Below are positions 1,731 to 52,562 of a stretch of 64,000 bases of DNA, piece by piece. The stretch comes from Pochonia chlamydosporia 170 (taxonomy: Eukaryota > Ascomycota > Sordariomycetes > Hypocreales > Clavicipitaceae). The position numbers were made by a program, and so were the translations under genes. The DNA lies in NCBI RefSeq assembly GCF_001653235.2, contig NW_019154045.1, positions 558,001 to 622,000 of the forward strand, read 5' to 3'. Each line of letters opens with the position of its first letter. The stretch's first letter is position 1. Under the pieces are notes generated by a model, which had not been told where the DNA came from, ran no database searches, and saw nothing but the letters and a program-made list of their open reading frames with translations.

Positions 1731-3509
1731 ATGGCGACCACCGAGGCTGGCGGTGGAGACATGGAACGCCGCCCATTGTTGAGACGCTCCTCTACTGGCC
1801 GCAACACGGTCGAAACTGCCGACAATGTGTCCCTTAAAGAGCATACCAATTTCTCAATTTACATCGTTGTATTATTGCTTGCTATATTCGCAATGTTTCT
1901 TGGCGAGTCTTTTCAAGAACCGGCCTTTGGGGAGATAGAAGAGGGCATCTTTTGTCGGGAATACTTTTCCAACGTCACCGACACCGCAAATGACCCGCGA
2001 TGCAAGGACCAGCGCATTCAGTCGAATATATCCATGTTGGAGGCTGTAGAAGCGACCATTAGATTTGCAGTTTCTCTTCTTACCGGTATTCCTTATGGTA
2101 TTGTTGCTGAGAGGTTCGGTCGCCGACGCGTACTTGTCGTTAGCATGATTGGCATGGCATTGAGATACCCACTTGATTTGATAGTTTGTGCGTATTTCCA
2201 GAGCGTCTCTCGACTTCCCTTTTTTTTTTTCTTTTTTTTTTTCTTTTGTCACGCCTATGCGACGACAAAACAACAACGCTCAAACTAACATGGAAGCTCT
2301 AGTCAAGCTTTTCCCCATACGATTTTATTGGCTTGTGGCCCTTGTAACTGGTTTGGGAGGAGGAATTACCGTCTTCATGGCGATAGTATACACCATTCTA
2401 AGCGATATAAGTACCCAAACACAACGGTATGCGCCCGAATTCTATTTTGGTCTCAACTTTTCTCAGTGTATCACTAACACAACATCTACAGTGCCACCGT
2501 CTATTTTTATGTTTCTGCGATATTCGCTGGTACACCGATTATTGGAAATCCTCTTGCATATCTTGCAATGAAGCGTGGACCGTGGTTTTCGTCTTATATA
2601 TCGATTGCTTGTAATCTTGTTGCAGTTCTTTTAACACTTCAAATCCCAGAGACGAAACATGTCGCGAGTTCGCAGAACGGAGGCTTAGAGAATGATAATA
2701 GTGCGGAAACAGAGAACTCGTCAAGCCAAAACAATGAAACACTTCCCACACTTTCCAAAGCCAACATTCTATCTTCAGCTAGAGATGGCATTATCTCGTT
2801 ACGCGGTATCATTTGGGACAACAAAAGATTAAGCACTGTATTATGCTCAACCCTGTTTACGAGGTTGGGCAGCTATACACATGCTTTGCTAATGCAGTAC
2901 ATCGCGAAACGATATTCAATGAAATGGTCCGAGGTTAGCAGTCTCTTACCCTGGTTTGCTCGCTGTGGGCGGGCCTATAGGACGCACACCATGCTAACAA
3001 TACTTTTGGCACAGGCCAACTTGGTAATAACGCTCAGGTTCTTGAGTAAGCTAATACTCGTCCTGTTCGTCTTGCCTGTTGCTAGTCACCTTCTTCTACG
3101 GGCCCATGTCTCACCGCTTGCCAAGGACCTGCTGCTGGCGCGATGTTGCATCGTGATTACAGCTGTAGGAGCATTTGGCATTGCGTCAGCTGCCACACCA
3201 GCTGTACTAGTAGTGTTTCTTGTCCCCTTTGCTTTTCTCGAGGGATTCAATGCAACCGTGAAGAGCTTCCTAGCACAGCTTGCGGGAGGCGACCGAACTG
3301 CTATTGTTTTCACGGCAGTAGGTGTATTAGAGAATGTGGGAGTGTTATTGGCTGGCCCAGCTATTGCTGGCACATTCAGCGTTGGCCTTCGGTGGGGAGA
3401 ACAATGGTATGGGCTCCCTTTTGCGGTAGCTGGGGCTATGTTTAGTGTTGCTGCTGTCATGGTCCTGAGCATCCGAATCTACAGCGAAGATGCAGCTGAG
3501 CGGGAATAA
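1731..3509 (+). CDS. MFS transporter
   Basis: Plasma-membrane major facilitator protein of about 505 residues. My exon model is 1731-2187, 2303-2426, 2492-2933 and 3015-3509, with all phases consistent. The N-terminus is hydrophilic with a charged RRPLLRRSS stretch. The first helices follow at IYIVVLLLAIFAMFLG, and the loop GIVAERFGRRRVLVV (about residues 123-137) is the conserved MFS A-like motif between helices 2 and 3. A central Ser/Asn/Glu-rich cytosolic loop separates the two six-helix halves, and the last helices end in a short acidic tail. Intron 1 contains a T/C tract of more than 30 bases. The N-terminal half resembles uncharacterised fungal multidrug/peptide-type MFS proteins, and the substrate is unknown. 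It lies 0.8 kb from the UstYa-like oxidase and may be a transporter of that locus, which is inferred only from position. Confidence 0.8.
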
Positions 3510-4339: not shown

Positions 4340-5421
4340 TCAATGATTTTCATCTTTAAGTTCAAGTTGGAAGCCATTCTCCTTCACATAACTCACAATC
4401 TTGTCGAAATCTCGACACTTGTGGAATGTGTTGAAGTCGGCCGAGAATCCTAATGTTCTCTCCTTGTCATACAAGTATAGCAGCGGCGTGACGTCTGCAG
4501 TGCACATTAGACTTATTCTCAGGGTTTCTATACAATGATCAACGTGCATCCGAGTCATTACTCGGTCTTTGAAGAGAGAGGGGTAAAGCAGTTTTGGCCA
4601 GGACGGATCAAACTTGCTCAGGCCCCAGGAGTGCTGACGTAGCACATTCTGCTCAGATAATGGATGATTAGTTTTGATGTGGTAAAAGAGGGACTGAAGT
4701 CATGGTGAAAGTCATGATAGAAACTTACAAGGCAATGTAGCTGGTGAAACACCTCTAGATAGGCGCCATACTGCGGATTGGCAGGGTCACTTCCCAGAAC
4801 CTCGACATGCTTGCCACGGTGAGTCTGGTTCAATGCCTCAAGGCTGGCCTTGTCAATGGGAAGTACATCTTCTGAATAGCGAAAAATGATCAGCCCACAG
4901 GTTAGTCATCGTCCAAATAGAAAGGAACATTGAGAAAACGACGGATGTTAGGCGACTTACGATACCAGAGTGCGTGCCATGCCTGCTCACGTTCGAGTGT
5001 AGGTGGCCCACGATATATTGATGAAACATTGAATGCGTTATTGAACGACCCTTCCCAGTATTGTACTGCATCCCAAGCAGGTGCTGGAAAAAACAAAAGT
5101 CAATAATGTGTGACCAAGACAAGGCAGATGGAAACGGGAGAATAGAGACAAGTACTCACAGTATGTTGAGACCTTTTTTGCACATTCCAAGTCTGATAGG
5201 GCAGGTTTCTTGCCAAGGGATATTAGTAATACACATAAGGATACTAAAAGGATGACGATATTGGCTGCAAAAGCCATGGTTGCTTGTTTGCGCGTCCACA
5301 TGGGTTGCTTGGAAGCTGGCATGTTTGCCAGATCCAGGTCGTCGTCGCAAGCCGATTCCGATTCATGCTTCTGGATGGAGATGGGCTCCAGGGGCTCGTA
5401 GCGACCGCGATCTGCAGGCAT
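4340..5421 (-). CDS. UstYa-like (DUF3328) oxidase
   Basis: Predicted membrane-anchored protein of 278 residues in four exons: 5421-5160, 5083-4961, 4871-4729 and 4648-4340, all in phase. An acidic cytosolic head is followed by one transmembrane segment (FAANIVILLVSLCVLLIS, about residues 48-65). The luminal domain carries both family signatures, HQLHC (about 173-177, split from the following NVLRQ by intron 3) and HVDHC (about 207-211). UstYa-family proteins in ustiloxin, cyclochlorotine, phomopsin and asperipin clusters catalyse oxidative cyclisation, hydroxylation or chlorination of peptides, and the HxxHC motifs are thought to bind the metal. The gene diverges from a small secreted peptide gene 0.6 kb away, which makes that peptide the natural candidate substrate; this last point is inference. 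Family membership is strong, exact chemistry unknown. Confidence 0.88.
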
Positions 5422-6024
5422 GGTGAATGTCTATGGTACTTGGTGCTGGCCGTCAATGGCCAAGTCGAATCTAGATACAAGAAGAGCAAGAGAGCCAGCT
5501 GGAGGGTCGTATTGTATTTGTTTAGAGTTAGGTAGAGTTGAGGCGAAGGAGCAGGGATCAATTCATGTCATGTCTGGTCAGGCGTGTCCATGTGGGATTG
5601 TGGATTCCATGTTCAGACAGTCTGGTGGACTTTGGAGCATGCAGTCTGGTAGTAAAATATCTCATCTGGCTGGGGCCATCAGTCAATCGATCAATTGATC
5701 CTTCTGTAACCCAAGCTCGACTTGGCGAAATCTGGACGCTCACACCATCCTTGCACCGTTCATACACCATCCATAACTCATCCATGCATTTGGACCTTCT
5801 TGATATCGCTTAGCGCGCGTGGGGTGCCTTGGATAACTTATTGTATCAATGCAACATTGCTTATATAGGCCGGACCGTCCCCCCCTTCAAAGTCAAGCGT
5901 CTGCTCTTAAGTTCCATCAAGCCTTTTTTTGTTTTACCTTTTGGGCACGGCTCTCATCATCACGCTACACAAAAGTCACTTTTTTTTGAAGCGTCAGCAT
6001 CTCAAAAAATAAAAACCCGTCACC
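5422..6024. promoter_or_regulatory. Shared promoter of UstYa-like and secreted-peptide genes
   Basis: The two genes are transcribed away from each other from this 603-base interval. A TATATA box lies at 5862-5867, about 160 bases before the peptide ATG. The peptide start sits in a strong context (CACCATGG). Three CAGTCTGG/GTCTGGTC motifs occur at about 5573-5650, the same motif found upstream of other genes in the window. A bidirectional promoter would give co-expression of oxidase and peptide. Confidence 0.5.
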
Positions 6025-6301
6025 ATGGTTCTGTCCTCCACTGCTTTCTGGGCCGTCATGGCTGCCATGGCCGCATCCGTTGCTTATGCCCGTCCAGGTA
6101 TGGCCGACCGCTGCCTTTTGTTTTCACGTTTGATCTCAAATCCATTCAATTGCTCTAACTGTGCCGTTTCTCAATACAGTCTCCGAAGTCGTTAGTGGTG
6201 TTAGCTTTCCTGGCACTGCTGGCGTAGATCTCATGGCATACAGCAACAAGGACGGCGCCCCCAGCGCTAAGGAGGCTGCCGCTATCCTTGGAGAGAAATA
6301 A
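6025..6301 (+). CDS. Small secreted peptide, candidate precursor for the adjacent UstYa-like oxidase
   Basis: Two exons, 6025-6097 and 6180-6301, joined by an 82-base intron (GTATGG...ACAG, branch-like CTAAC), encode 64 residues. Residues 1-22 form a clear signal peptide (MVLSSTAFWAVMAAM...VAYA with an AYA-R cleavage site). The mature part is about 42 residues, Ala/Gly/Ser/Val-rich with one Phe (33), one Tyr (44) and no Cys. It ends in a Lys/Glu-containing helix-like tail (SAKEAAAILGEK). It lacks the tandem core repeats and the KR/KK Kex2 sites typical of ustiloxin-type precursors, so if it is a precursor it carries one core. It diverges from the UstYa-like gene and is followed by an ABC exporter. 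Alternatives are a small effector or a signalling peptide. The gene structure is well supported, the role is not. Confidence 0.65.
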
Positions 6302-7331: not shown

Positions 7332-10300
7332 ATGGCCACGGTACTGAGGGCCGTTGGCGTTGGAGTTGGAATGAGCAACCTGGATAACTCTTTTGGCCCG
7401 CAGCTGGGGTCGCAGTTCGACTTTACTCTGCTGTTTGAGGATTCAATCTTGACTATCCTGCCCGCAGGCCTGTTCATTGCCGTAACTCCATTTTTCTTCT
7501 TGCACTACCTGAAGCTACCGATATACATCTCCAGCGGCCTTCTTTTATGGACCAAGCTTGTAAGTTGACCCATGTCTTCAGCCAGTCTTGATGATTCCAG
7601 TCGTCGTTGCCTTCTCTCACACAACTTCGCGCCACACATAGGCCATTGCGGTGGCGCTTCTTGGCGTTGACATCGCCAAGCTGGGGTTGTGGAGCACATT
7701 GCCTGCCTTGCGATCTCATGGTACTTTGCCGGGGGCTGTGCTGGTATGCATCAGCTCTCTCTGCTTGGTCGCCATCCTCAGTCTCGAGCACCGGCACTCG
7801 CTGCGATCGTGGGCATTTACGAGCCTCTACCTTAGCTTGACCCTGTTGCTGGATATCGCAAAATCTCGAACCTACTTCTCCAGATCTGGCCTCGACGCAA
7901 TTGCGGGTTTGTCGACTGCATCATGCATAGGCAAGTTGGCTCTTCTCTTGTTGGAGGAGGTCCCCAAAAGAAGATACATCAAGGTTCTTGCCCTCAAGAA
8001 CTCGTTGAGCCGGGAGGCCATTAGTGGATTTTGGACGAGAGCCTTGTTTCTTTGGCTGAATCCAACGTTTTTGTCGGGGTACAAGACACTTTTGCAGGTT
8101 GAGAGTTTGGGGAATCTAGGAGATGACTTCGCAGCTGATCACCTCTCGGCAAAATTTGAACTCGTTTGGGCAAAGTGTAAGTTGTACACATAAATTGCCA
8201 AAATTTCCAACACCGTGGTAGTGGAACGTACCTCTCTGTAGGATGCTAACATCATCATCAGACAACCATGTATCAAATCCGCTCATCTGGTCAACTGTTG
8301 TGACACTTCGACGCCCATTTTTGGCTGTCTTCATTCCGCGAATACTTTACACGGCGTTTACATTTAGCCAACCTTTATTATTACAACGTATTGTTCGATT
8401 CGTTGGCGAGAAAGATCCCCCAGCAACCGTTCGCAATGGCCTTATAGGAGCGACCGTTCTTATTTACTTTGGAATAGCGGTATGTTTTTGTGTCCATAAC
8501 CCGCGCGCGCCGATATTGGCACAATAAGCCTGATTGGCATCGTAGATTACCAGAGCCGGCTTCAATCACGCCAACTATCGTTCAGTTACTATGCTTCGTG
8601 GTGTGCTCGTCTCGGAGATATTTAAAAAGACCTTTGCACTTGAGCAGACAAATGCCAAGGAGCTAGCTGCAGCGACCCTAATGAGTACAGATATAGAAGG
8701 CATTTCCATGAACCTTCTCAAATTTCACGAAATCTGGGCCAATATTATCGAGTTTGCTCTGGGGACATACCTACTCACAACCGTAATTGGCAAGGCAACA
8801 ATTCTGGTTATATTTCCAGGACTAAGTAAGCAGCTTTTCGCTTTTGCCAACACCTCATATTCACACGCGTTTCTATTTCCATCTTCTGTTGCAAATTTAA
8901 CATGTAACTAGTTTCCGCGGTAATTGGTTTCGTTATTGGCCAACGAATAGGCCCTGCGCGAATGGCCTGGAATAACGAGATTGAGCATCGAGTCTCAATT
9001 ACCTCAGATATGCTCCAACAGATCAAGACCATAAAGATGGTTGGCCTGGCGCCCTCTGTGTCTGATCTAGTTCAAGACCTTCGACATTCAGAGATGGAGC
9101 AGTCCAAGCCTTTTCGAATTTTGTTCACAATAATGCAAGCCTCTGGTATGGGCTTCCCTACTAGCGGATGTTGAGGATGAGCCTAATTTTGCATCTAGTT
9201 TTACTTTGCTATCAAATTACGCCTGTTATTATAATTACTGCCGCAATCCTCTGGACAGGCTTATCCAACGGATTGAATGCTACCGATACCTTTACGGCCC
9301 TAGCATTTGTCACCATGACGGCACTGCCAATGGCAAAGTTATTGGCTGCGTACCCGAAATTTATGTCTATATTAGGCTGCTTCAAACGGATTGAGGCATA
9401 TCTTTTACTAGAAGAACGCCTGGACAGCCGTGTTGTCATCGACAATCCCAAAAGTCGCGGCTCTGAGAAAGACGACTCCGAGAAAGATCTTTCCAACTGT
9501 TCAACGTTGGAAACCAGCCAAGTTGCGAATGAACCATGCATCCCGCATGCTCCCGTCGTATTTTGGAACGCATCTATTGCTCCGCCTGGAAAAGGCCCTA
9601 TACTAAAGGGAGTAAATATCTCAGTAGCTCACTCAACACTTGTGATGGTTCTCGGCCGCACTGGCTCTGGCAAATCCACGTTTTTGAGAGCCATAGTCGG
9701 CGAGGCTAATTTAACAGACGGAGCGATCTACATAGAGCAGCGTCAAATTGCCTATTGTGACCAGGCCTCTTGGCTAAAAGGTCTTTCTATTCGAGAGAAT
9801 ATTATCGGAGAAAGGTCGTACGATGCAGACTGGTACGAAACCGTGCTCAATGCATGCCTCCTAATCGAGGACATTCGACAACTTGTACACGGCGATCAAA
9901 CAATGTCCGGAGATGGTGGTTCCAACCTGAGTGGTGGGCAGAGGCAAAGAATTGTACGTCACAACCCTTTCTAAAAAAGATCCTTCCTCTGACAATATCA
10001 CTCTAAGGCTCTTGCTAGAGCTGTCTATTCACAGGCCCCTCTGCTAGTCCTGGACAATGTGTTGAGTGCCTTGGATAGCAACACAGCAGACGCTATCTTC
10101 CATAGGCTTATCGGCTCGGGTGGCTTGCTACAACGGCTGGGTACCACAGTCATTATGACTACCCACTCAGGTAATACCCTCATTCTACCTACAATAGTCT
10201 TATTGCTAACACTCGAGCAAGCCAAATACGTTGACTCCGCTGATCAGGTCTTGCTCATTGGGGAGGATTGCACCATAGAGTCTGTGTCGAGATCAAGAGA

Positions 10301-12521
10301 TGTAGTGCACGGCGAGAAGGATATGGCTCGACTGCTTTCAGCCACTTCTCAAGATGAGAGTATAGAGAAGACCAAAGTCACTGATTCATCTCAGGACACT
10401 TCCAAGGATGATTGTGTCAGCCCTGATGAGAAGCCGCTGGTGCGACAGCGAGGAGACTTTGGCCTTTATGTATATTATCTCAATTCGACAGCCAAATGGC
10501 TCTGGGCAATCTGGGTGGTTGCAGTTGCGCTATGCGCATTTTCGGAAAGGCTCCCTGGTAAGGAAAATGCAAATATGGATATACGCCAAGTATACTAACC
10601 CCTTTGTTAGAAATCTTCCTTCGTATTTGGTTAGATGTCGCCCCTGGCAATAAGACATACCTTGTAGGGTATATTATATTCGGATTTGGTAGTTTTGTGG
10701 CCAGCGGACTATCAAAATGGTAAGATATGGATGCATGTCGATTGACTAAATCTGGCTAATATTGTAATAGTTTGTACTTTCTTAAAATCGTTCCCGATAG
10801 TTCACAGAATTTGCACCGCAGTCTTCTGCAAAAAGTCATGGGGTACAAAATATACACTTTGTCAACATAATGAAGTTTCTAATGCTGGTCAGGTCCACCT
10901 TATTATTTCTTTCCTCAACAAATACCGGATCTATTCTCAACTTGGAAGTATAATCCTATCACCGTTTAATGTTACGTATTCCTAACTGCGGTGCAGGTTT
11001 AGCCAAGACATGAGTCTTATTAGCCAGGACTTGCCAATGTCATTTTCTCTTGTAATATACTGTATGCTCTCTCCCGTTTTACCATGAACTTCGGGAACGT
11101 CATCTAACAAACGAAATTATAGCTTTTTTCTTGTTGGTCACAGATGTAGGCATCATTGCATCTGGGGCATCCTACGTTGGCATTACAATACCCTTCATCT
11201 TTGCCTGCTTGTATATTATTCAACACTTCTACCTACGAACATCACGACAAATGCGGCAACTTGACCTGGAGTCCAAGACGCCCCTTTATACCCAGTTTAC
11301 CGAAATTACCGCTGGTTTGATGCACATTCGAAGTTTCGGATGGCAAATTCAGTACCTGTCTCAAAGTCTACAAATGCTGGACTATTCCCAAAAGCCATTT
11401 TACTATATGTTTTGTATCCAGCGATGGCTTGGCCTGGTGTCGGACCTCTGCGTGCTTGGCGTGGTGACTATTCTAGTCACGGTTGCATTATGCCGCCAGG
11501 ACTCAACGTCGCAGAATGCCATTGGCCTGGCGCTGCTAATTGTTATTCAATTCGGCGACTCCATTGTTGCCCTACTTACGACCTGGGTGGATATAGAGAC
11601 TTCACTAGGTGCTATTGCCCGTGTACGAGCCTTCAACGAAGCTACACCAACAGAGGAAGACCACGGGGGCGCCGAACTACCTTCTGGCTCCTTTAAGCAG
11701 GGAGCAGTAAAGATGGCTGATGTATCAGCCACTTACAAGTAAGAACATCGGTTGTCTCAGTCCCTAACTCCCCAATGTCCGCCGTGTGAACTAATAAGCG
11801 CGTTTTGAAGTCCCTCAAATAGCTCGGTCACGGCTCTTCGTAACGTGTCACTTGACATTAAGCCTGGACAAAAGGTCGCAATCCGCGGCCGAACTGGAAG
11901 GTGCGATCTTTCACGTATGCGCTCGATGTTTCGGCGACTAATCATGAGTGTAGTGGGAAAAGTTCCCTCATTTTGACGCTCTTAAATTTCTTAGAATATA
12001 CAGGGATAATAGAAATTGATGGTACAGACATATCTACCATTTCACGACAACAGCTCAGGTCTCTTATCACGACGATCCCCCAGGAGATACTGGAGCTTCC
12101 AGGAACATTGCGCTACAATCTCCTCCCAGCAAACGGAAAGCAGCCACCGGACGATGTTGTGATTGCTGGAGTACTAGAAAAAGTACGACTACGGGATCAT
12201 GTGGATGCCCATGGTGGACTTGATGCTCCCCTAGTGAACATGGGCTTTTCGCATGGTCAAAAACAATTGCTTGCCATTGCACGAGCAATACTGCATAAAC
12301 TGGCCAACAAAAGCGGCCTATTGTTAGTGGACGAGGCCACGAGCGGTATGGATCATGAAACGGCCGACGTAATGCAGGAAGTCATGAACGAAGTTTTTGG
12401 TAGTTGCACGGTGATTTCGATTTCACATCGACCTGAAAGTATTCGGAATTCAGACGTAGTCATCGACATAGATGATGGAAGGGTTGTCTGCATAGCCGAA
12501 CATGGGTCATCAGAGACCTGA
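7332..12521 (+). CDS. ABCC (MRP-type) ABC transporter, possibly with one broken exon junction
   Basis: Full-size exporter of about 1,440 residues in about 15 exons: 7332-7559, 7642-8176, 8262-8479, 8546-8825, 8912-9145, 9199-9953, 10008-10170, 10222-10557, 10611-10719, 10771-10842, 10893-10947, 10997-11061, 11123-11738, 11811-11900 and 11954-12521. A hydrophobic TMD0 of five or so helices precedes TMD1. NBD1 has Walker A GRTGSGKST, signature LSGGQRQRI and Walker B LLVLDN, with Asn where a carboxylate is usual. NBD2 has Walker A GRTG/SGKSS split by an intron, signature FSHGQKQ and Walker B LLLVDE, so only NBD2 looks fully competent, as in many fungal ABCC proteins. The junction between exons 11 (ending TGSILNL) and 12 (starting FSQDMSL) is out of phase by one base with every GT-AG pair I can find. 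The product may export the metabolite of the neighbouring oxidase/peptide pair (inference). Confidence 0.85.
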
Positions 12522-13185
12522 TGGAGAATTGACTGCACCTTGTACATCATGAGAGTAGTAGACTCGATTGGATAAAAAGATATAGCATTCGTAATGTCGG
12601 CATAAACAATGGTCAATATGCCAACGAACATCTTGGACAGGGTTGATAAGTGCGGCCACACTGAGGCAAAGCGAGGGTTCGAGGCAGGCTTACATCTACG
12701 GGAATGATGTGGACGGCGATGGTTATTGTCGCTTCTTCAACCTAGAGACTCGATACCTTGCAAATAGCGTATTGATTGACGAAAGACCCCCAGGGCTCAA
12801 TTACGCATCAGACACCAATACCGTGACAAGTCAGTTCACACAAGCCTCTGCCAGTTGGTGGGGATGTTGGGTTATTTGGGGGTTGCTTTGAGAAACAGCC
12901 CAAGGTATTTCCGTACATGCCTGGTCGTACAAACAAGCTTCCGATTAGCACAAAAGCTCAAATAGCATGCATGTATCGTAAATTTGTTTCACCAAATTCA
13001 CGTCGCGGGGCCGAGCTAAACAGTTTGACACGATTGGCAACCCCCGGCCAGTTCAGCTGATGCGGGCAAGCAAGGATCCGCGATATCGTCTCCCCAGGCT
13101 GCAAGGTGGCAATCACACGCGTCTTCTCCTCGTCAAATGTGCAGAACTTGATCCATCACTCATTTCGGGTGGATGCCAAGCTACA
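12522..13185. other. Intergenic region
   Basis: Nothing supported. A short frame at 12643-12891 has no recognisable features. The reading frame of the next gene is open upstream to 13060, but the signal-peptide-like start at 13186 is preferred. Confidence 0.45.
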
Positions 13186-14658
13186 ATGCTTTTCACAATC
13201 CTGCTGTGGCTCTCCATATCATGCCTCGCGGCAGCCTCTCTACCATGGGGTTCGCAGGATGTGACGCCGGGAGTCAAGACATCGGGTCCTGTATCCTTTG
13301 ACCCGTTGGCCATCCTCGCGATCCTTTGGAATCCCCGCGCCTCGGTGAGCGCATCAAGACTGTATGCCCAGCCCTATCATTACGGAAGGAAACGGCAACG
13401 ATGGCCGCATCTCATGCAAATCGGCGCTGTTACTGTGCCTGTCTCAGTCCTCGTCAACCATCTTACACGCAACTACCGGTCTATTCATCCTGCGCTGGAA
13501 ATGTTCATGGGCAATGTGGACAATCTCAATGTCAAGTCGACCATTGGAAAAGTGGTCAACTTGTTTCCAACACTACCAGTAAGCGGGAGCGAATCGAGCT
13601 TTGTTGACTCTCTAGCATTTCGACCCTCAAAGCACCCAAGGAACGATATCATGGTTGTTTCTCTCCTGCGACCTGGGATGAGAGTGTTTGGCACAGGTGA
13701 AGATGACTCAGAGGTGCAACATGCCGATACAGCAGACAAGAAAAACAGACGACTCAGCAAGACCATTTTTGGACTGACTGAGGTAGTAATGGGGGTGCTG
13801 GTATCTGGCGGATTAACAATCAGTGTTTTGCTGTACGACATTTGGGGCGTTGTGCTGTTTGGTTCCTACTTCTTGCATTGGCTGGCGTCGACAGCTGCTT
13901 CGCTTTGCCAGTTAGTTGAATCAGATACTTGGAAAGAAGAACTGAATATCCGGCAAGACAATGACATTGTTTTTGCAATTTATGAGCGACCATCGGGAGG
14001 GTGGGTCATCTTTAAAGGCACACAGGAGACCATGGAGCGATGGGCCCGGACGTCGTGGAGATTTGTCGACAACAAACCACACAATCGCCTAGTTCACTGG
14101 GCTTGGATGATGACAGGTCTCTTCGCAGCCCTCTCTTCGGTTGCCAACATGATCAATATGACGGGATACATGCAATTGGGCTTCCTTGGCGTGTTAGTGT
14201 ACGGTTCAGTTGCAGAGCTTTGGTTGACAGTGTTGGATCAAATGTCTCAACCCGACTCAATGAGTTTTCTTGGTCCGTACAGCACGCACACAGTGGCGGC
14301 AAATGACAAGAAGTATAAGAGTATTGTACAGGCTTGTCTCAGCCTGGACAACACGCACCGTCTCGGCCCAGTACCGTGGACTGAACTAGGGCTTCTTCCC
14401 AAAAGAGAACCGTTCCTTGCTTTAGAGCAGATGATTCAAAGTTTACACAGCGCAGCCTTGGCTAATGGAGACGTTGCAGACGAAGCAAGCCTGGACGCTG
14501 CCCTTGTACATTTTGACCATTCGTGCAAAGATTTGCACCAAGATGAGGTTGACTACCAGCAGGGCATACGTAACGAGGTTGAGAGGGTGTGGCGAGAGCG
14601 GATTCAACAGGAGCAGAAGGAAGCACAACCGAAGGCGGCGCCGCGACTCACCGTATAG
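13186..14658 (+). CDS. Secretory-pathway multi-pass membrane protein of unknown function
   Basis: Single-exon gene. The frame is open from an ATG at 13060, but I prefer the ATG at 13186, because the protein then begins with a typical signal sequence (MLFTILLWLSISCLAAAS) and is 490 residues long. Further hydrophobic segments lie at about residues 90-106 (IGAVTVPVSVLVNHL), 204-250 (two helices around SGGLTISVLLYDIWGVVLFGS) and 312-362 (two or three helices, AWMMTGLFAALSSVANMI onwards). The C-terminal 130 residues are soluble and charged, ending in a Lys/Glu/Gln-rich probable coiled coil. I do not recognise the family; similar uncharacterised membrane proteins are common in ascomycetes. It follows the ABC transporter on the same strand. 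Confidence 0.7.
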   Translation: MLFTILLWLSISCLAAASLPWGSQDVTPGVKTSGPVSFDPLAILAILWNPRASVSASRLYAQPYHYGRKRQRWPHLMQIGAVTVPVSVLVNHLTRNYRSIHPALEMFMGNVDNLNVKSTIGKVVNLFPTLPVSGSESSFVDSLAFRPSKHPRNDIMVVSLLRPGMRVFGTGEDDSEVQHADTADKKNRRLSKTIFGLTEVVMGVLVSGGLTISVLLYDIWGVVLFGSYFLHWLASTAASLCQLVESDTWKEELNIRQDNDIVFAIYERPSGGWVIFKGTQETMERWARTSWRFVDNKPHNRLVHWAWMMTGLFAALSSVANMINMTGYMQLGFLGVLVYGSVAELWLTVLDQMSQPDSMSFLGPYSTHTVAANDKKYKSIVQACLSLDNTHRLGPVPWTELGLLPKREPFLALEQMIQSLHSAALANGDVADEASLDAALVHFDHSCKDLHQDEVDYQQGIRNEVERVWRERIQQEQKEAQPKAAPRLTV

Positions 14659-50407: not shown

Positions 50408-51752
50408 AGCGTAGATAAAAAGGGTTATTATTTTGGTGATGGACTAGTTGGCTATGCCCCAAAAGTGCCTGGGAAGCCGGGACAGTCGAATTTCGACGAC
50501 GATGCTGGTGCATTATGAGCTTTTGTAGAGACTTGACAACCCCATGTCAAGGCACACACTCGACAATGAAAAGCGTCAGCTGCTTTCTAACTAACTTCAA
50601 GTATTGTGCTGTTGTCCACGACGCAAAACTTAGCGTTCAGGTGGTATGCTGATGCGGATTTCCGTTGCGTTTACGCTGGTGTGCTTACACATTTAAAATC
50701 TGACACGGAGATGGAGGCGTTGTCAGCCACAATCAAGATACGGAGTACGGAGTAGTGACGGGAAATTCCCACCGTCCCGCATACACGTACTCCGTACAGA
50801 CGGCCGCGCTTACAGTTTGCAGGCACGGGTACTTAGGTAATCAAGTCAATCTTGTGCTATGAACGACATCTCCAATTGAGGTTTGTGCTTGGTGACGTAT
50901 GCGCAGGGACCACACATAACTTCACCACTTCACCTGCTGCCAGAGCCAGAACGAAAGGGTCATCAAAGATGTCAAGGAACGACTGTGCACGAGGTGCCAT
51001 TCCGTTCCGTTTTGGTGCGTCTTGCAGCTGTGGCTTTCAGCCATATTCTGGCCATGTCAACACTCCCAGAACCGTTCTCAATGTTGTGCTGCCTGACAAG
51101 GACATGGACTTGTCTGGTCAAGGTTTGGATCGAGTCTGTGCAGTCAAGAACTGTGGGGCCGTCTACTTCTGCTGCCGCGTCTGATTGGAAGTGACCAATA
51201 TCTGTTGCCTCAAGCGGTCTGGTCTCGCCTGGCTTGGTCGGGTACCTAGGTACTAGGTACTCAGGGGCTTTCTGGTGCCTGAATTGAAGCCACCAGTTGA
51301 CCAGTCAAGTCTGGTTCTCCTTCGTGCCCCTTGTTGCTGCTTGTTGGTCTTGACTTGCACATGGTTCAATGTCTGGTTGGTTGGGTCAAGTTGGCCGCCC
51401 AAGGGGGAGACGAAATGTCACACACCACCAGAAAAAGTCATCGTCAGTTTGTTCTTCTCTAAACTCGCGCAACCTTTCGCTCATTAGCCGCATGGCAGAT
51501 ATTGCATCCTTGCGATCGCAAAATCGCACTCGCTCATTCTTTTCCACTTGGTGGCGCTAAATACTCACGTTCTCTTGAATCGATTAATCGACCAATCGAC
51601 CGACAGTCGCTTCGTCATCGCTGTCCAAGGCAGGCGTACCAGTGTCCGAATTTCCGTCGTAACCAATTGTCCTTGTCCCGTCTGGTCAAGTGCTTGTGTG
51701 CCCTCGCTGGTACAAATCCTATCAGACCAGACCCCAAAAGCATCAAAATCGC
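50408..51752. other. Intergenic region with palindromic and CTGGTC motifs
   Basis: Divergent promoter region of the tannase-family and GPI-protein genes. ATACGGAGTACGGAGTA at 50738-50754 and GTACTCCGTAC at 50787-50797 form an inverted set. GTCTGGTC and TGGTCAAG motifs cluster from about 51110 to 51400 and again at 51680, and GGTACCTAGGTACTAGGTAC lies at 51241-51260. No gene supported. Confidence 0.45.
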
Positions 51753-52562
51753 ATGCGCATTCCTTCCGTAGCCGCGACGGGCTTGTCCCTGTCGCTGCCG
51801 TTGTCTCATTTGACACCAGACTCCAACATCGCAAGAAGCAAACGCGACGACACCACCACTATCTGGGCCACGCCTCATGATAGCTACTCCTCGTCTATTG
51901 GAGTTCCCGGTTGCAAAATTAACACAAATCGCGTGGCCTACTGGCCGCAATCCGTCGACTGTAATAACATTTGTGTCTCGCTTGAGTACCAAGATCGCCA
52001 AGTTTACCTTCTCCGAATCGATCAATCCGCCGGCGCGCATGATGTTAGCTACGATGCATGGAACTACCTTTACACTGGCAAATCAGCGTCCGACAAGCCA
52101 ACTTCTGGCGGTGCAGTGGCAATGCAGTACCACAACGTCGATGCCTCGAAATGCAGATCACTCTTACACACCAAAGACGGCAAGTTGCCGCTTAGCGCTG
52201 CCAACAGCATGAATTTCCTCACCAGCTGTCTGGCTCAACCTCAAAGTTGGGTGGCGCGGAACTACATGACGCTCAATATTGTCGATTCAATATGTACACT
52301 GGGTGTTGACGAGCAGTGTAAATTGAATTGGCCCGACGCAAATCAGCCATCTTGTCCACACATTCTGGGCGGACTGGTGTCTCTTAAGAACGCACCCGTC
52401 TACAATATCCAATACCCTTCCGGCAAGAAGGTGTTGGCATCATCTGGCGCATCTGCTATTGGCACTGGAAGTGGCAACGGCAATGAGGAGAATACTGCCG
52501 GCCATATTCGACAGCAATGGTGTTTTATCAGCCTAGTTGTTTTGACCTGTTTAATGCTCTAA
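51753..52562 (+). CDS. Secreted, probably GPI-anchored protein of a fungal family of unknown function
   Basis: Intronless, 269 residues from the ATG at 51753. The N-terminus has a weakly predicted signal (SVAATGLSLSLPLSHL) followed by KR, a possible Kex2 site, before the mature domain. Residues of about 35-210 carry eight or so Cys with IWATPHDSYSSSIGVPGCKIN, VAYWPQSVDCNNICVSLEY, GGAVAMQYHNVDASKC and a PHILGG end. This pattern resembles barwin-like/double-psi beta-barrel secreted proteins of fungi. The Gly/Ser/Asn spacer and the hydrophobic C-terminus (CFISLVVLTCLML) with upstream small residues (SGASAIGTGSG) suggest a GPI-anchor signal, so the protein is likely at the cell wall or membrane. 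The function is unknown. The frame is open upstream of the chosen ATG, without a signal there. Confidence 0.75.
   Translation: MRIPSVAATGLSLSLPLSHLTPDSNIARSKRDDTTTIWATPHDSYSSSIGVPGCKINTNRVAYWPQSVDCNNICVSLEYQDRQVYLLRIDQSAGAHDVSYDAWNYLYTGKSASDKPTSGGAVAMQYHNVDASKCRSLLHTKDGKLPLSAANSMNFLTSCLAQPQSWVARNYMTLNIVDSICTLGVDEQCKLNWPDANQPSCPHILGGLVSLKNAPVYNIQYPSGKKVLASSGASAIGTGSGNGNEENTAGHIRQQWCFISLVVLTCLML

What the first reader, a model, noticed from the sequence alone, without database searches (positions are those of the whole stretch)
4340..6301. UstYa-like oxidase divergent from a 64-residue secreted peptide: candidate new RiPP-type pair
A DUF3328 protein with both HxxHC motifs shares a 603-base promoter with a tiny two-exon gene encoding a signal peptide plus about 42 residues. 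UstYa proteins modify ribosomal peptides in known dikaritin pathways. This peptide has no repeated core and no KR/KK Kex2 site, so if it is the substrate it defines a precursor unlike ustiloxin, asperipin or phomopsin types. The gene structure is seen directly; the pairing is inference from layout.
Basis: partly seen in the sequence, partly recalled or inferred. Interest (0 to 1): 0.78.

Follow-up and report, generated by a model that had tools for sequence, protein, structure and literature searches.

The report
Fungal oxidase beside orphan secreted peptide
A copper-oxidase-family gene and a tiny secreted-peptide gene of a mould sit back to back and both look real, but nothing yet shows that the enzyme works on the peptide.

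Summary
A UstYa/DUF3328 gene (four exons, 5421-4340, both HxxHC motifs) diverges from a two-exon gene for a 64-residue signal-peptide protein (6025-6097, 6180-6301), 603 bases between the ATGs. The peptide gene is almost certainly real: 15 bits of coding signal; no model reached 10 bits in 2.56 Mb of random sequence. The RiPP pairing is not shown, nor excluded. The genome has at least 27 UstYa loci. Nine repeat-type precursor candidates (one tentative) all lie within 2 kb of a UstYa match; non-repeat small secreted genes do not cluster there (4 of 8 within 2 kb, about 3.5 expected). The peptide has no repeats, dibasic sites or second copy, and no homologue was found. New here: UstYa and the ABCC gene beyond the peptide have consecutive locus tags in Conoideocrella and Hirsutella and equal contig lengths in Metarhizium rileyi. 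No condensation, ketosynthase or P450 match lies within about 126 kb. Most likely: a conserved oxidase-exporter module beside an independent orphan secreted protein. Live minority reading (about 0.27): a single-core, non-repeat RiPP precursor.

The parts
4340..5421 (-). UstYa/DUF3328 oxidase gene, exons 5421-5160, 5083-4961, 4871-4729, 4648-4340, 278 aa, HQLHC171 and HVDHC211
   Evidence: splice model; PF11807, 148.9 bits
5422..6024 (.). shared divergent promoter region, 603 bases; TATATA at 5862 on the peptide side; 12-base palindrome at 5689
6025..6301 (+). 64-residue signal-peptide protein, exons 6025-6097 and 6180-6301, 82-base intron
7332..12521 (+). ABCC-type transporter gene; first 934 residues modelled over 7332-10560, the rest read only as frames and translated matches
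2478..3509 (+). last coding frame of a transporter-like gene downstream of UstYa; MFS-like by eye, Pfam match below its cut-off (17.5 against 27 bits)

Best explanation
The locus holds a conserved pair of a membrane-anchored, lumen-facing, copper-dependent UstYa oxidase and an ABCC-type transporter, with an independent, lineage-specific small secreted protein gene in the gap between them. The oxidase most likely works in the lumen of the secretory pathway on a peptide made elsewhere (lumenal copper chemistry is shown for the relative CctR and inferred here), and the transporter exports or stores the product (inferred). The 64-residue protein is most likely cut after its signal peptide and secreted as a plain peptide of about 42 residues that is not the oxidase's substrate (inferred from base rates). 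Shown: the two gene structures, the motifs, the UstYa-ABC linkage by locus tag in two other fungi. Inferred: every functional step.
For: PF11807 and both HxxHC motifs; both motifs invariant in 50 homologues; AlphaFold model of the M. rileyi homologue P0002 (mean pLDDT 79.4) has a long N-terminal helix 45-72 and the motifs on helices 169-183 and 205-226, as described for CctR. UstYa-ABC linkage: QQS21_007458/007459, HIM_08686/08685, and equal contig length in M. rileyi. Non-repeat small secreted models sit near UstYa at chance level, 4 of 8 within 2 kb against about 3.5 expected, while 9 of 9 repeat-type candidates do. Peptide single-copy and without found homologue.
Against: At the stricter setting the only three small secreted models in 292 kb were this peptide and two repeat-type precursors, each beside a UstYa gene. 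No other substrate source was seen at the locus: no repeat precursor in the window or 9 kb upstream, no condensation, ketosynthase or P450 match within about 126 kb (the P450 search scored 92 of 183 candidates). The peptide lies exactly between the two linked genes. The base-rate test is small and the sorting was by eye.
Confidence: 0.57

Rival explanations
1. The 64-residue peptide is the UstYa substrate: a single-core RiPP precursor without repeats or dibasic Kex2 sites, oxidised or cyclised (perhaps at Tyr45 or Phe34) in the secretory pathway; the product is exported by the adjacent ABC transporter.
For: Divergent pair with a 603-base promoter; real gene; between two genes that are linked in other fungi; only small secreted model kept in the 64 kb and one of three in 292 kb at the stricter setting; UstYa genes of this genome often have a precursor within 2 kb (9 repeat-type candidates in 9 of 27 loci); no local NRPS/PKS/P450.
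Against: No repeats and no dibasic sites; proximity of non-repeat small secreted genes is at chance level; no homologue found, none annotated between UstYa and ABC in two fungi; no comparable peptide at L022 or L026.
Confidence: 0.27
2. The UstYa tailors a nonribosomal peptide or polyketide made by a local cluster, as CctR does in cyclochlorotine.
For: A UstYa paralogue (L026) lies about 3 kb beyond a giant NRPS frame elsewhere in the genome; DUF3328 is found in NRP and polyketide clusters.
Against: On this contig condensation matches lie at 20-26 kb, a ketosynthase at 70 kb and the nearest P450 match at 435 kb, against UstYa at 562 kb.
Confidence: 0.06
3. The peptide gene is not real; the frame and intron are chance.
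For: No homologue found; no transcript data.
Against: 15.0-bit coding score against no model of 10 bits or more in 2.56 Mb of random sequence; codon adaptation p = 0.008; consensus intron signals and TATATA.
Confidence: 0.03

Closest known systems
Dikaritins (ustiloxin, phomopsin, asperipin-2a, epichloecyclin, victorin)
   Same: UstYa homologue beside a signal-peptide precursor candidate.
   Different: No repeated core, no dibasic Kex2 sites; no modified product known. Described in PMC10512285 (passages) as made from Kex2-processed repeat proteins.
Cyclochlorotine hydroxylase CctR and kin (DUF3328 in NRP clusters)
   Same: PF11807, two HxxHC motifs, N-terminal helix and motif helices in the homologue's model.
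   Different: No NRPS near the window's gene.
Lichen UstYa clusters without recognised precursor (PMC12048977, passages and section 22)
   Same: UstYa without a repeat precursor; its authors raise a single core peptide or an unlinked precursor.
   Different: Here a specific small secreted gene sits beside the oxidase and a linked ABCC transporter; no comparison with those clusters was run.
Orphan small secreted proteins of fungi
   Same: Under 100 aa, signal peptide by a simple rule, no homologue found.
   Different: Lies between a UstYa gene and an ABC gene that are linked in other fungi; no Cys.

Membership tests
UstYa/DUF3328 oxidases | PF11807 match | tested here: met
   148.9 bits against a cut-off of 25
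UstYa/DUF3328 oxidases | HxxHC(x)nHxxHC motif | tested here: met
   HQLHC171, HVDHC211
UstYa/DUF3328 oxidases | N-terminal membrane helix and lumenal helical domain | tested here: inconclusive
   AlphaFold model of the homologue P0002 has helix 45-72 and the motif helices; the window's own protein was not modelled
UstYa/DUF3328 oxidases | Binds two copper ions and oxidises a substrate | not testable with these tools
   shown for CctR only
Dikaritin RiPP | Precursor is a Kex2-processed repeat protein (3 or more repeats of 8 or more residues between KR/KK/RK/RR) | tested here: not met
   no dibasic site and no repeated 3-mer (definition)
Dikaritin RiPP | UstYa homologue near the precursor | tested here: met
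   603 bases between the ATGs
Dikaritin RiPP | Cyclised or oxidised peptide product | not testable with these tools
   no chemical data
NRP-tailoring DUF3328 (cyclochlorotine type) | NRPS in the cluster | tested here: not met
   nearest condensation matches on the contig are more than 500 kb away
Orphan small secreted protein | Short, signal peptide, no found homologue | tested here: met
   64 aa; hydrophobicity and -3/-1 rule met; no hit at E <= 1

The most novel reading that the evidence does not exclude
A new fungal RiPP type: a conserved UstYa-ABCC pair whose precursor is a short, single-core, non-repeat secreted peptide without dibasic Kex2 sites, missed by annotation because it is tiny and spliced.
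Probability: 0.25. Interest if true: 0.8.

Novelty: new member of a known kind. Interest (0 to 1): 0.38.

Why it matters
In this genome repeat-type candidates were seen at 9 of 27 UstYa loci, so many UstYa genes have no recognised precursor beside them. If single-core precursors exist, repeat-based mining misses them, and the gap between the linked UstYa and ABC genes of related fungi is a small, well-defined place to look. If not, the case shows that adjacency to a UstYa gene is weak evidence in a genome with at least 27 such loci.

Tried and rejected
Peptide not real: rejected. Hidden repeat precursor in the window or in 9 kb upstream: none found. NRPS, PKS or P450 partner nearby: no match (the P450 search scored 92 of 183 candidates). 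Shared promoter element with the ABC or MFS-like genes: no shared 11-mer; 1 and 6 shared 10-mers, not followed up. Second peptide copy: none in the genome, none comparable at L022 or L026. UstYa relatives (query P0002) in viral contigs: two pattern matches, none confirmed. Solved structures by sequence: best match to the UstYa profile E = 0.014, to a viral surface protein, which I treat as chance; none for the peptide. Folds: none at E <= 0.001, best E = 2.1. NCBIfam: nothing for UstYa, the MFS-like frame or the 558-aa protein. The DNA of the UstYa-ABC gap in other fungi could not be read: the tools hold no other fungal genome. A non-UstYa control set could not be fetched, so the only control sequence is the rest of the window and L037.

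Full report
What is there. UstYa is four exons on the minus strand (5421-4340), 278 aa, with HQLHC and HVDHC and PF11807 at 148.9 bits. The peptide gene is two exons on the plus strand (6025-6097, 6180-6301), 64 aa, with 603 bases between the two ATGs. Its mature part has no dibasic site, no repeated 3-mer, no Cys, and one Phe and one Tyr.

Is the peptide gene real? Its codons score 15.0 bits against the window's trinucleotide background, with a table from 12 other frames of the window; codon adaptation beats a synonymous null at p = 0.008. In 2.56 Mb of 4th-order Markov sequence, signal-peptide models (with or without an intron) reached 8 bits 7 times and 10 bits never. The intron has consensus ends and a CTAAC, and a TATATA lies 162 bases upstream of the ATG. 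I take the gene as real; no transcript was seen.

Conservation. The peptide search returned one candidate and no hit at E <= 1 among 5.8 billion proteins; the genome holds no second copy. Tiny spliced genes are often not annotated, so absence there is weak evidence. The UstYa has 177 homologues at E <= 0.001, of which 120 were listed. In a FastTree of those 120 plus three proteins of this genome, the window's UstYa falls in a 12-member clade (support 0.98) whose named members are from Metarhizium, Conoideocrella and Epichloe; inner branches are weak, 0.38-0.53, except a pair with an unnamed metagenome protein at 0.99. The host is therefore probably a Clavicipitaceae mould (inference; its name was not given).

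A linked partner. The gene beyond the peptide, 1030 bases past its stop, is an ABCC-type transporter. Its relatives include Conoideocrella QQS21_007459 and Hirsutella HIM_08685, which carry the tags next to UstYa genes QQS21_007458 and HIM_08686, with equal contig lengths; and a M. rileyi protein whose longest contig (422,531 bases) equals that of the M. rileyi UstYa. I compared the two 120-row listings by eye and found these three; the M. rileyi case rests on contig length alone. The Hirsutella UstYa is not in the window's clade, so the linkage may be older or repeated. Consecutive tags mean that no gene is annotated between the two. In this genome more distant ABCC relatives also lie in UstYa loci L012, L017 and L029.

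Base rate. PF11807 gives 48 exon matches in 27 loci, lower bounds by the tool's own caution; all 27 loci were read: 20 stretches of 9.9 kb, 6 of 5 kb, and the window, 292,026 bases. Repeat-type precursor candidates stand in L011, L013, L014 (tentative), L015, L017, L020, L023, L024 and L030. By eye only L013 and L030 clearly meet the strict definition of three or more repeats between dibasic sites; L011 and L017 show two clear copies, L020 is degenerate. Left out as not precursor-like: a long repeat frame in L028, a second repeat frame in L020 (7782-8345) and frames antisense to counted ones. All 9 lie within 2 kb of a UstYa match. The small-secreted scan (8 bits or more, up to 130 aa) gave 16 models: 4 of the repeat type, 8 non-repeat that I kept, and 4 that I dropped by eye (L025, L036 and window 59318, likely pieces of larger genes or chance; L034 2003-2368, a UstYa piece). 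Of the 8 kept, this peptide included, 4 lie within 2 kb of a UstYa match, where 44% of the bases are, so about 3.5 are expected; one of the 4, in L034, may itself be the start of a longer protein. Sorting was by eye and after the fact, and the two kinds came in part from different scans. Against my reading: at the stricter setting only three models remained in 292 kb, this peptide and the repeat precursors of L011 and L017, all beside UstYa genes.

Other substrates. On this contig condensation matches lie at 20-26 kb, a ketosynthase at 70 kb and the nearest P450 match at 435 kb, against UstYa at 562 kb (the P450 search scored 92 of 183 candidates). No repeat precursor was found in the window or in 9 kb upstream. 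A local NRPS or PKS product is thus unlikely, and the peptide is the only small secreted candidate kept in the window. This keeps the RiPP reading alive.

Mechanism. CctR, a DUF3328 enzyme, is a membrane-associated homodimer with two coppers per monomer at HxxHC(x)nHxxHC, placed by its authors in the organelle lumen (PMC12435403, parts 1 and 2 of 3). The motifs are invariant in 50 homologues of the window's UstYa, and the AlphaFold model of P0002 shows the same layout, without a counterpart among solved folds at E <= 0.001. I infer the same chemistry for the window's protein.

Literature. Dikaritins are described as RiPPs made from Kex2-processed repeat proteins and cyclised by UstYa homologues (PMC10512285, passages); genes of 22% of 7878 such proteins are accompanied by DUF3328 genes (PMC7329392, abstract and sections 7 and 13). 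PMC12048977 (passages and section 22) found UstYa clusters without repeats, suggested an unlinked precursor or a single core, and notes that DUF3328 is not exclusive to RiPPs. PMC7099791: outline and abstract only. In the listings (titles and abstract starts; one search listed 30 of 513, 20 of 48, 20 of 24) I saw no proven non-repeat UstYa precursor; this is not an exhaustive search.

Verdict. Observation confirmed; the pairing is a plausible minority hypothesis that one look at the UstYa-ABC gap of related fungi could settle.

Noticed in passing
L011 1514-1892, L013 4416-5009, L014 6974-7312, L015 6410-6676, L017 4757-5016, L020 6192-6599, L023 6915-7202, L024 2937-3191, L030 6417-6638: Repeat-type precursor candidates beside other UstYa genes of the same genome: a rich set of dikaritin-like loci; L014 is tentative and L020 degenerate.
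   Followed up: partly
G000 C1 about 412-440 kb (-) and 468-497 kb (+); L026: Two open frames of 10,062 and 10,009 aa full of NRPS condensation domains. About 3 kb beyond the second lies a UstYa paralogue, with a hydrolase-like gene (by eye) between.
   Followed up: no
12982-14655 +: A 558-residue open frame with likely membrane segments (by eye) and no Pfam or NCBIfam match, just beyond the ABC gene.
   Followed up: no
P0001 (Metarhizium album MAM_06892): The database protein holds one stretch of about 40 residues twice in tandem: an annotation slip or an exon duplication.
   Followed up: no
51663-52559 +: Cerato-platanin match just over its cut-off, 24.6 against 24.4 bits.
   Followed up: no
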